The notes below the pieces were generated by a model. That model was not told the origin of the DNA and searched no databases. It saw nothing but the letters and a program-made list of their open reading frames with translations. Shown here piece by piece: positions 13,530-15,472 of a DNA stretch of 45,415 nucleotides. The position numbers were made by a program, and so were the translations under genes. Source of the stretch: Thermoleophilaceae bacterium (lineage in GTDB: Bacteria; Actinomycetota; Thermoleophilia; Solirubrobacterales; Thermoleophilaceae); the NCBI GenBank assembly GCA_030447905.1, contig JAUJNZ010000010.1, positions 1-45,415 on the forward strand, given 5' to 3'. How positions within the stretch are numbered: position 1 is the stretch's first letter; each line of letters begins with the position of its first letter.

Positions 13530-14819
13530 ATGGCCGCCTCTCCCGATTCCAGCCGGCGCGCCCCCCTGACCAAGACGGCGTCCTATGAGGCCGAGCCCCA
13601 CGAGGTCGCCCGCGTCCTGCTGCTCTACTCCGGCGGGCTCGACACGAGCGTCATGCTCAAGTGGATCCAGGACGAGTACGGCGCCGAGGTCGTGGCCCTG
13701 ACCGTCAACCTCGGCCAACCCGGCGAGGACTACGACGTCGTGCGCGGCAAGGCGCTCGACCTCGGCGCGCTCGACTGCCGGGTGGTCGACGCGCGCGAGG
13801 AGTTCGCCCGCGAGTACGTGCTGCCGGCGATCAAGGCCAACGCCCTCTACGGAGGCAGCTATCCGCTCTTCACCGCGCTCGGCCGCCCGCTGATCGCCAA
13901 GCTCGCCGTCGAGGCCGCGCGCGACACCGGCTGCGACACGATCGCCCACGGCAGCACCGGCAAGGGCAACGACCAGGTGCGGATCGAGGCCACCGTGGCT
14001 GCGCTTGCCCCCGAGCTGCGGATCATCGCGCCCGTCCGCGGCTGGCAGATGGGCCGGGAGGAGGAGATCGCTTACGCGCGCGAGCACGGCATACCGGTCA
14101 AGGGCGGGACCGAGGCACCTCCCTACTCGATCGACGACAACCTGTGGGGTCGCTCGTCGGAGGGCGGGCCGATCGAGGACCTCTCCGAGCCTCCGCGGCC
14201 CGACGTGTTCCAGCTCGTGACGCGTCCCGAGGAGGCGCCCGACGAACCGCGGCTCGTCGCCGTCGAGTTCGAGCGGGGCTGCCCGGTTGCCCTCGACGGC
14301 GAGCGTCTCGGCCTGGTCGAGCTGCTCGAGCGGGCGGGCGAGCTCGGCGCCCGCCACGGGTGCGGGATCGTCGACCACATCGAGGATCGGATCGTCGGCC
14401 TCAAGGTCCGCGACCTCTACGAGACCCCGGCGGCGGCGATCCTCCTCACCGCCCACCAAGAGCTCGAGAAGCTCGTCGGCACGATCCACCAGAACAACTT
14501 CAAGCCCGGCCTCGACCGCCAGTGGGCCTTTCTCGTCTACGCCGGGCTGTGGCAGGAGCCGCTGCTCGACGACCTGAACGCCTTCATGGACCGGGTCAAC
14601 GAACAGGTCACGGGCACGGTGACCATCAAGCTGTTCAAGGGCAGTACGGCGGCGGTGGCGCGCTCCTCGCCGAACGCCCTCTACGATCCGGCGCTCGCCG
14701 GCTTCGGCGAGTCCGGCGGGATGTTCTCGCAGGCGGCCTCCCCGGGATTCATCGAGCTGTGGAGCCTTCAGTCACGGATGGCCTACGGACTCAGGCGCAG
14801 AGGGGAGGGAGAACCATGA
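13530..14819 (+). CDS. argG: Argininosuccinate synthase
   Basis: 429 residues. The ATP-binding P-loop YSGGLDTSVMLKWI is near residue 32; AHGSTGKGNDQVRIE and the citrulline/aspartate-binding segments (YSIDDNLWGRSSEGGPIED) are intact. It joins citrulline and aspartate to argininosuccinate. About 20 extra residues precede the conserved core, consistent with a start at ATG 13530 that is also supported by the -10 hexamer ten bases upstream. The stop overlaps the ATG of a downstream small reading frame. The argH partner is not in this window. Confidence 0.97.
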   Translation: MAASPDSSRRAPLTKTASYEAEPHEVARVLLLYSGGLDTSVMLKWIQDEYGAEVVALTVNLGQPGEDYDVVRGKALDLGALDCRVVDAREEFAREYVLPAIKANALYGGSYPLFTALGRPLIAKLAVEAARDTGCDTIAHGSTGKGNDQVRIEATVAALAPELRIIAPVRGWQMGREEEIAYAREHGIPVKGGTEAPPYSIDDNLWGRSSEGGPIEDLSEPPRPDVFQLVTRPEEAPDEPRLVAVEFERGCPVALDGERLGLVELLERAGELGARHGCGIVDHIEDRIVGLKVRDLYETPAAAILLTAHQELEKLVGTIHQNNFKPGLDRQWAFLVYAGLWQEPLLDDLNAFMDRVNEQVTGTVTIKLFKGSTAAVARSSPNALYDPALAGFGESGGMFSQAASPGFIELWSLQSRMAYGLRRRGEGEP

Positions 14820-14983
14820 GCAGACCGGGGTATACGTTGCTGGGCTGAATCGTCTGGCAGATCGGCCGTCGCGTGGCGCGGCGCAAGCTCGCCACCACCC
14901 GCGTCAAGCTCGGCCTGGCCGCCGCGGTTTCGATTGCACTCGCTGCGGCGATCGCGGCCGCGCGCGCGGCCGCCCACGAGTAG
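14816..14983 (+). pseudogene. Small membrane protein gene interrupted by in-frame TGA
   Basis: ATG 14816 (overlapping the argG stop, with GGAGGG upstream) reads ten codons, MSRPGYTLLG, then TGA at 14846-14848, then the same frame stays open for 44 more codons to TAG 14981-14983. The second part begins IVWQIGRRVARRKLA and ends in a hydrophobic helix (LAAAVSIALAAAIAAARAA). The joined 54-residue product looks like one coherent basic, single-helix small protein, of the type written with Trp at the interrupted position in related small proteins I recall. A TGG-to-TGA change is the simplest explanation. Re-initiation at GTG 14873 could still make the C-terminal part. Confidence 0.6.
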
Positions 14984-15073
14984 TCAAGGCGCGGCGCCGG
15001 GCTGCCGATGGTAGTCACCATCCCGTCACGGTTGCGCCAATCGGATGCCTACCCTGGGGACCCCCGAAACACC

Positions 15074-15472
15074 ATGAACGTCGCCACCCGTCTGCCCCAC
15101 GAGCCCGCCTCGATAGCCGAGGCGCGCGCCGCACTCGAGCCGCTGGAGCCCGCCGTCGATCGCGTGACCATCGGCACCCTGCGCCTGCTCGTCTCGGAGC
15201 TCGTGACCAACAGCGTTCGCCACGGCCGGCCCGAGCGCTCCGCTGGGGATATCGAGCTGTCGGTCTCCAAGTCTCGGCGGACCGTGCGGGTCGAGGTCGC
15301 CGACGCGGGCCGCGGCTTCGTCACGCGCCCGCGGGTCGCCGGTCAGGACGCGGGCTCGGGCTGGGGCCTGTACCTGGTCGACGCCCTGAGCGACCGCTGG
15401 GGCACCGAGCGCGACGGCCGGATGCGGATCTGGTTCGAGATCGACTGCGGCCCGGCGGCCGCGGCCGCCTAG
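15074..15472 (+). CDS. Anti-sigma-factor-type histidine kinase-like ATPase (HATPase_c_2)
   Basis: 132 residues of a GHKL ATPase fold: N-box LLVSELVTNSVRHG near residue 38, G1 box VADAGRGF near 75, G2-type GSGWGLYLVDALSDRWG near 94. It has no dimerisation domain, transmembrane segment or receiver, so it resembles the RsbW/SpoIIAB group that bind a sigma factor or an anti-sigma antagonist in the cytoplasm. ATG 15074 is preferred because the core starts soon after; an ATG at 15008 would add 22 residues of no clear origin. TACCCT at 15050-15055 is a possible -10. No sigma factor or antagonist gene is nearby, so the partner is unknown. It converges with dnaE 18 bases downstream. Confidence 0.8.
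   Translation: MNVATRLPHEPASIAEARAALEPLEPAVDRVTIGTLRLLVSELVTNSVRHGRPERSAGDIELSVSKSRRTVRVEVADAGRGFVTRPRVAGQDAGSGWGLYLVDALSDRWGTERDGRMRIWFEIDCGPAAAAA

What the first reader, a model, noticed from the sequence alone, without database searches (positions are those of the whole stretch)
14816..14983. In-frame TGA inside a coherent 54-residue small protein
Ten codons, a TGA, then 44 codons with a basic segment and a transmembrane helix. The start overlaps the argG stop and has a good Shine-Dalgarno, so the gene looks designed to be translated. The codon at the TGA position is most simply an old TGG (Trp). Alternatives are stop-codon read-through or re-initiation at GTG 14873, which would separate a cytosolic decapeptide from a membrane peptide.
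Basis: partly seen in the sequence, partly recalled or inferred. Interest (0 to 1): 0.55.

Follow-up and report, generated by a model that had tools for sequence, protein, structure and literature searches.

The report
Stop-interrupted conserved gene behind argG
A small membrane-protein gene that relatives of this bacterium keep intact right after argG has, in this one genome alone, a stop codon where its nearest relatives have tryptophan, so it is most likely a recent mutation or a sequencing error rather than a special reading of the code.

Summary
In detail: ATG 14816 overlaps the argG stop, ten codons lead to TGA 14846-14848, then 44 open codons to TAG 14981-14983. The ORF is a real gene, of an unnamed family of about 55-residue membrane proteins encoded directly behind argG: 54 of 77 argG loci with at least 200 nt downstream carry it. 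Across 65 members, this one included, the TGA column holds Trp/TGG in 27, another sense codon in 37, and TGA only here. Residues after the TGA are conserved and undecayed. Recoding is not: TGA is the commonest terminator here (95 of 164), tRNA-Trp reads CCA, and there is no hairpin excess. A probable Sec UGA on the same contig shows the contrast. The GTG for re-initiation is not conserved. I cannot decide between a real recent nonsense mutation and an assembly error: the assembly has single-base deletions in ilvB and smc. Ordinary; low interest.

The parts
13530..14819 (+). argG, argininosuccinate synthase; stop TGA 14817-14819
   Evidence: ORF; NCBIfam TIGR00032 and NF001770 over cut-off
14804..14808 (+). 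GGAGG, Shine-Dalgarno-like, 7 nt before ATG
   Evidence: read
14816..14845 (+). codons 1-10 of the small membrane protein; start overlaps argG stop (ATGA), as in 22 of 27 Trp-bearing relatives
14846..14848 (+). in-frame TGA at the Trp11 position; sense codon in all 64 other family members examined
14849..14980 (+). codons 12-55: rest of helix 1, basic segment, transmembrane helix 2; conserved with relatives
14873..14875 (+). GTG (residue 20) proposed for re-initiation; not conserved as a start codon
14981..14983 (+). TAG, normal end of the gene, near where relatives end

Best explanation
This is a genuine member of an uncharacterised family of about 55-residue membrane proteins whose start is coupled to the end of argG. 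In this genome (or in this assembly) it carries a private single-base change of the ancestral Trp11 codon TGG to TGA. Shown: membership, sense codon in all other members, no decay elsewhere, TGA used as an ordinary stop. Inferred: translation starts at 14816 and ends after MSRPGYTLLG, inside the first of two predicted helices, so that no membrane protein is made except by leakage. If the change is real it is a recent nonsense allele of a dispensable gene (I give about 0.5); if not, it is a base-calling or assembly error and the protein is normal (about 0.4). The likely job of the intact protein (inferred only from shape) is that of a small inner-membrane protein with a basic N-terminal helix at the membrane surface; its tie to arginine synthesis rests on gene order alone.
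For: Family: 54 of 77 argG loci with at least 200 nt downstream carry a member; 65 distinct members in all. Column of the TGA: 27 TGG, 16 Phe, 7 Tyr, 14 other sense codons, 1 TGA. The only genus mate in which argG was found (G003) has TGG; the other two of three gave no argG match. After the TGA the copy keeps the frame for 44 codons, coding score 0.28 against at most 0.07 in other frames; over the whole protein it keeps 10 of 12 columns that are at least 80% conserved, and its terminal branch is short (0.09; 23rd longest of 28). TGA is the commonest terminator in 316 kb of this genome: 95 of 164 confident ORFs. tRNA-Trp has anticodon CCA. No internal stop within a true gene in 88,986 aligned bases, by my reading of the four stops listed, all at or beyond gene ends or in wrong-frame ORFs.
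Against: No reads and no second isolate of the species were at hand, so the base itself is unverified. A real pseudogene should in time show further decay, and none is seen; that fits either a very recent mutation or an error. Conservation tests on 44 codons have little power.
Confidence: 0.9

Rival explanations
1. Assembly or base-calling error: the true base is G, the gene is intact and nothing is unusual. (A sub-case of the best explanation, given separately because it removes the feature.)
For: The assembly holds single-base deletions in genes that should be intact: two in ilvB (C20 about 49025 and 49779) and one in smc (C3 about 79275), by alignment with relatives. Two near-identical copies of one region of this genome differ by 2 substitutions and 4 indel events in about 12.8 kb. 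No decay around the TGA.
Against: The errors seen are mostly deletions; no nonsense substitution was seen within true genes in 88,986 aligned bases. The duplicate regions may be real repeats or strain variants, so their differences need not be errors. Within the window I judged no aligned true gene to be frameshifted (one search lists splits at two window places, one in an ORF antisense to the real gene, one with short weak matches).
Confidence: 0.4
2. Leaky or regulated read-through of the UGA by tRNA-Trp, so that some full-length protein with Trp11 is still made.
For: The residue a near-cognate tRNA-Trp would insert is the ancestral one. The downstream frame is intact. That UGA is the leakiest stop in bacteria is recalled, not tested.
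Against: No other of 64 members has a stop at this place, so no read-through has been conserved; the stretch after the TGA folds no better than shuffles (z +1.48, +1.03, +0.06) and ranks 40th of 65 in stability among members.
Confidence: 0.05
3. Two products: a decapeptide and a membrane peptide re-initiated at GTG 14873.
For: The GTG is in frame and would leave a basic stretch plus the transmembrane helix.
Against: At that residue Trp-bearing relatives have GTG in 8 of 27 and GTC in 8 of 27, as expected of an ordinary Val; no Shine-Dalgarno-like run lies before it.
Confidence: 0.04
4. Selenocysteine at UGA: the organism has the machinery.
For: tRNA-Sec over cut-off and SelB over cut-off.
Against: Relatives have Trp, not Cys. 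The contrast case in the same genome, a MinD/CooC-type ATPase, keeps TGA in many relatives, has Cys in others, and carries an inverted repeat of at least 8 bp with a GU loop in 11 of 11 TGA copies folded and 0 of 3 Cys copies. Nothing of the kind here.
Confidence: 0.01
5. Genome-wide TGA = Trp code.
For: Only this codon.
Against: TGA terminates 95 of 164 confident ORFs, and argG itself ends in TGA; tRNA-Trp is CCA.
Confidence: 0.005
6. Chance ORF with no meaning.
For: Short ORFs are common in this 72% GC genome.
Against: 64 homologues in the same place after argG.
Confidence: 0.005

Closest known systems
Uncharacterised argG-3' small membrane protein family of Solirubrobacterales (no Pfam or NCBIfam model reached its cut-off)
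   Same: Place (start overlapping or shortly after the argG stop), length, YTxLGWxVWQ motif, basic segment, hydrophobic C-terminal helix
   Different: This copy alone has a stop at Trp11
Nonsense-mutated bacterial gene (young pseudogene) or its look-alike, a consensus error
   Same: Single private stop in an otherwise conserved frame
   Different: No further damage seen, so age or reality cannot be judged
Bacterial selenoprotein UGA with SECIS hairpin
   Same: In-frame UGA in a genome with tRNA-Sec and SelB
   Different: UGA not conserved, Trp rather than Cys in relatives, no hairpin excess
Pfam DUF6338 (PF19865)
   Same: Sub-threshold resemblance of three of seven members tested (14.3-16.1 bits against a cut-off of 26.5)
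   Different: Below cut-off; this copy itself had no match

Membership tests
argG-3' small membrane protein family | Located directly 3' of argG, same strand | tested here: met
   ATGA overlap; also in 22 of 27 Trp-bearing relatives
argG-3' small membrane protein family | Sequence match to the family profile | tested here: met
   E 1.7e-17, TGA masked as X
argG-3' small membrane protein family | Uninterrupted frame | tested here: not met
   TGA at codon 11, the only one of 65
argG-3' small membrane protein family | C-terminal hydrophobic helix | tested here: met
   KD 2.1 from residue 30; predicted helices 5-24 and 30-54 with the TGA read as Trp, mean pLDDT 69
Bacterial selenoprotein gene | UGA conserved, or replaced by Cys in homologues | tested here: not met
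   Trp in 27, Phe or Tyr in 23, others 14, no Cys
Bacterial selenoprotein gene | Stable hairpin just after the UGA | tested here: not met
   z-scores +1.48, +1.03, +0.06 on three spans that take in the TGA and the sequence after it; +1.12 on one that ends 22 nt after it
Bacterial selenoprotein gene | Sec machinery in the genome | tested here: met
   tRNA-Sec and SelB
TGA=Trp genetic code | tRNA-Trp(UCA), and TGA not used as stop | tested here: not met
   tRNA-Trp CCA; TGA ends 95 of 164 ORFs. Of 41 RF00005 hits the 30 best were fetched and their anticodons read; 11 were not fetched as loci of their own
Pseudogene by nonsense mutation | Stop present in the organism, not only in the assembly | not testable with these tools
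   No reads, no second isolate

The most novel reading that the evidence does not exclude
The TGA is real and fixed in the species, and the argG-coupled protein is made there only by UGA read-through with Trp, so that the amount of membrane protein depends on tRNA-Trp charging while a decapeptide is the main product: a lineage-specific switch born from a conserved constitutive gene.
Probability: 0.03. Interest if true: 0.55.

Novelty: new member of a known kind. Interest (0 to 1): 0.15.

Why it matters
As a recoding candidate it does not hold up, which is useful to know. What remains is an unnamed small membrane protein coupled to argG across an order, easily missed in annotation because of its length, and a clear same-genome contrast between a probably recoded UGA (a Sec-type ATPase further along the contig) and a private stop.

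Tried and rejected
Plasmid collection, distant mode: no match. Pfam and NCBIfam on seven members: nothing over cut-off. A sample of 296 genomes of the phylum with the 19-row profile found it in 2, this genome and one of the same order, so the family looks confined to the order at that sensitivity; the same cut misses members of other families of the order that one search finds behind argG. First attempts to measure broken genes were spoiled by long wrong-frame ORFs of the GC-rich relatives; one search used stricter codon-position filters, and I still judged the listed hits one by one. Rows dropped: of 91 distinct argG loci, 3 with under 200 nt after argG were left out; 23 of 88 had no family hit; one kept member (L084) has a weak best domain (0.075). 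L089's member ran past its stop in the alignment; this does not touch the TGA column. Papers: searches (listings); passages of PMC5424206, PMC5029168 (passages, section 21) and PMC1794560 (passages). None treats this family or a Sec-containing CooC-type ATPase in what I saw; the CooC hits in PMC5424206 were the words cooccurrence and cooccur.

Full report
What is there. The window is the start of contig C20 (100,892 bases) of a 2.58 Mb, 25-contig genome whose closest named relatives are Solirubrobacterales and Thermoleophilaceae MAGs. The upstream gene is argG by equivalog models. The described ORF is exactly as stated: start ATG 14816 inside ATGA with the argG stop, GGAGG seven bases upstream, ten codons, TGA 14846-14848, 44 codons, TAG.

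It is a real gene. A search of 101 genomes (this one and 100 relatives) with the ORF (X at the TGA) gave matches at E <= 1 in 71 of 101; the strong ones (E < 1e-7) lie in the same genus or family and none of them is interrupted apart from this genome's. To avoid the bias of searching with the ORF itself, I also took 80 loci found by their ArgG alone. Of the 77 with at least 200 nt after the argG stop, 54 carry a family member there by iterated HMM. All distinct members together, from both searches, number 65 of 88 loci examined. In the 27 with Trp at the position in question, 22 start in the same four-base overlap with argG.

The codon. The alignment column holding the TGA has TGG in 27, Phe in 16, Tyr in 7, Arg in 7, Ile, Met and Lys in 2 each, Leu in 1, and TGA in this genome alone. 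In an alignment of 19 close members, Trp is invariant in the 18 others by their own codons (the window copy was read there with TGA as Trp). The closest genome with an argG (G003, ArgG 90% identical) has TGG. In the other two genus mates no argG was found, both being incomplete and in hundreds of contigs.

After the stop. The 44 codons keep frame, codon usage and conserved residues: coding score 0.28 per codon against at most 0.07 in the five other frames, 10 of 12 columns conserved in at least 80% of relatives are kept (whole protein), and the copy sits on a short branch (support values are modest on 55 residues and the placement should not be trusted). The change is therefore recent, or not real.

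Not recoding. TGA ends 95 of 164 confident ORFs in 316 kb of this genome. The tRNA-Trp found has anticodon CCA; the only UCA anticodon among the loci scanned is tRNA-Sec (11 of 41 tRNA hits were not fetched as loci of their own). The mRNA after the TGA is, if anything, less structured than shuffles and ranks 40th of 65 among family members. The genome very probably decodes UGA as Sec elsewhere, having tRNA-Sec and SelB, and gives a contrast case: a MinD/CbiA-type ATPase (Pfam CbiA in relatives; 'CooC-like' is my recalled label) at C20:85101-85511 has TGA in a CxC-like motif; relatives keep TGA or have Cys, and all 11 TGA copies folded have the inverted repeat ACGCTACG-GTN-CGTAGCGT while 0 of 3 Cys copies do (in one of the 11, L197, the best fold uses only six of the pairs). 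The site in hand has none of these marks. Re-initiation at GTG 14873 is not supported: GTG and GTC are equally common there (8 and 8 of 27).

Real or error. In conserved genes of this genome I found single-base deletions: two in ilvB and one in smc (names on the relatives' genes). smc is normally essential or nearly so (recalled), so assembly errors are likely in this genome, though ilvB could be a spare copy. Two near-identical copies of a 12.8 kb region differ by 2 substitutions and 4 indel events. Against this, no nonsense substitution in a true gene turned up in 88,986 aligned bases. A separate intrinsic scan of 316 kb listed six stop-interrupted coding stretches; by reading, four look like ordinary gene junctions, one is the Sec-type ATPase, and one, a TAG in an alcohol-dehydrogenase-like gene at C3:123735, seems a damaged gene. 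I put a real nonsense allele at about 0.5 and an error at about 0.4.

How it works. The intact protein, by prediction with moderate confidence (mean pLDDT 69), is two helices, 5-24 and 30-54, the first basic towards its end (read from sequence), the second hydrophobic. With the TGA taken at face value, translation coupled to argG would stop inside helix 1 and yield a decapeptide. The function of the family is unknown to me; the argG link is gene order only, and the best guess is a small membrane-surface protein co-expressed with argG.

Noticed in passing
G000:C20:85101-85511 (outside the window; L198), second copy G000:C2:35318-35728 (L185): MinD/CbiA-type (CooC-like, recalled label) ATPase with in-frame TGA in a CxC-like motif, probably selenocysteine: TGA in 11 own or relative copies folded, Cys in 3, and an inverted repeat of at least 8 bp with a GU loop after every TGA and after no Cys codon. 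tRNA-Sec and SelB are present. Not in the top-20 selenoprotein table of PMC5029168; searches showed no report. It deserves its own study more than the present finding does.
   Followed up: partly
G000:C20 about 85520 and the C2 copy: The same ATPase loses its frame shortly after ILDTEASP in both copies of this genome, unlike the relatives shown.
   Followed up: partly
G000:C20 about 49025 and 49779; G000:C3 about 79275: Single-base deletions against relatives in ilvB (two) and smc (one), suggesting assembly errors.
   Followed up: partly
G000:C3:123735: TAG in an alcohol-dehydrogenase-like gene (label recalled) with loss of frame further on; damaged gene or errors.
   Followed up: no
G000:C2:33965-46802 against G000:C20:72097-86863: Near-identical inverted duplicate of about 12.8 kb reaching the end of C2, with about 2 kb present only in C20; repeat, strain variant or assembly duplicate.
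   Followed up: no
window 15008-15472: Next gene after the small ORF: anti-sigma-factor-like ATPase domain, below NCBIfam cut-offs.
   Followed up: no
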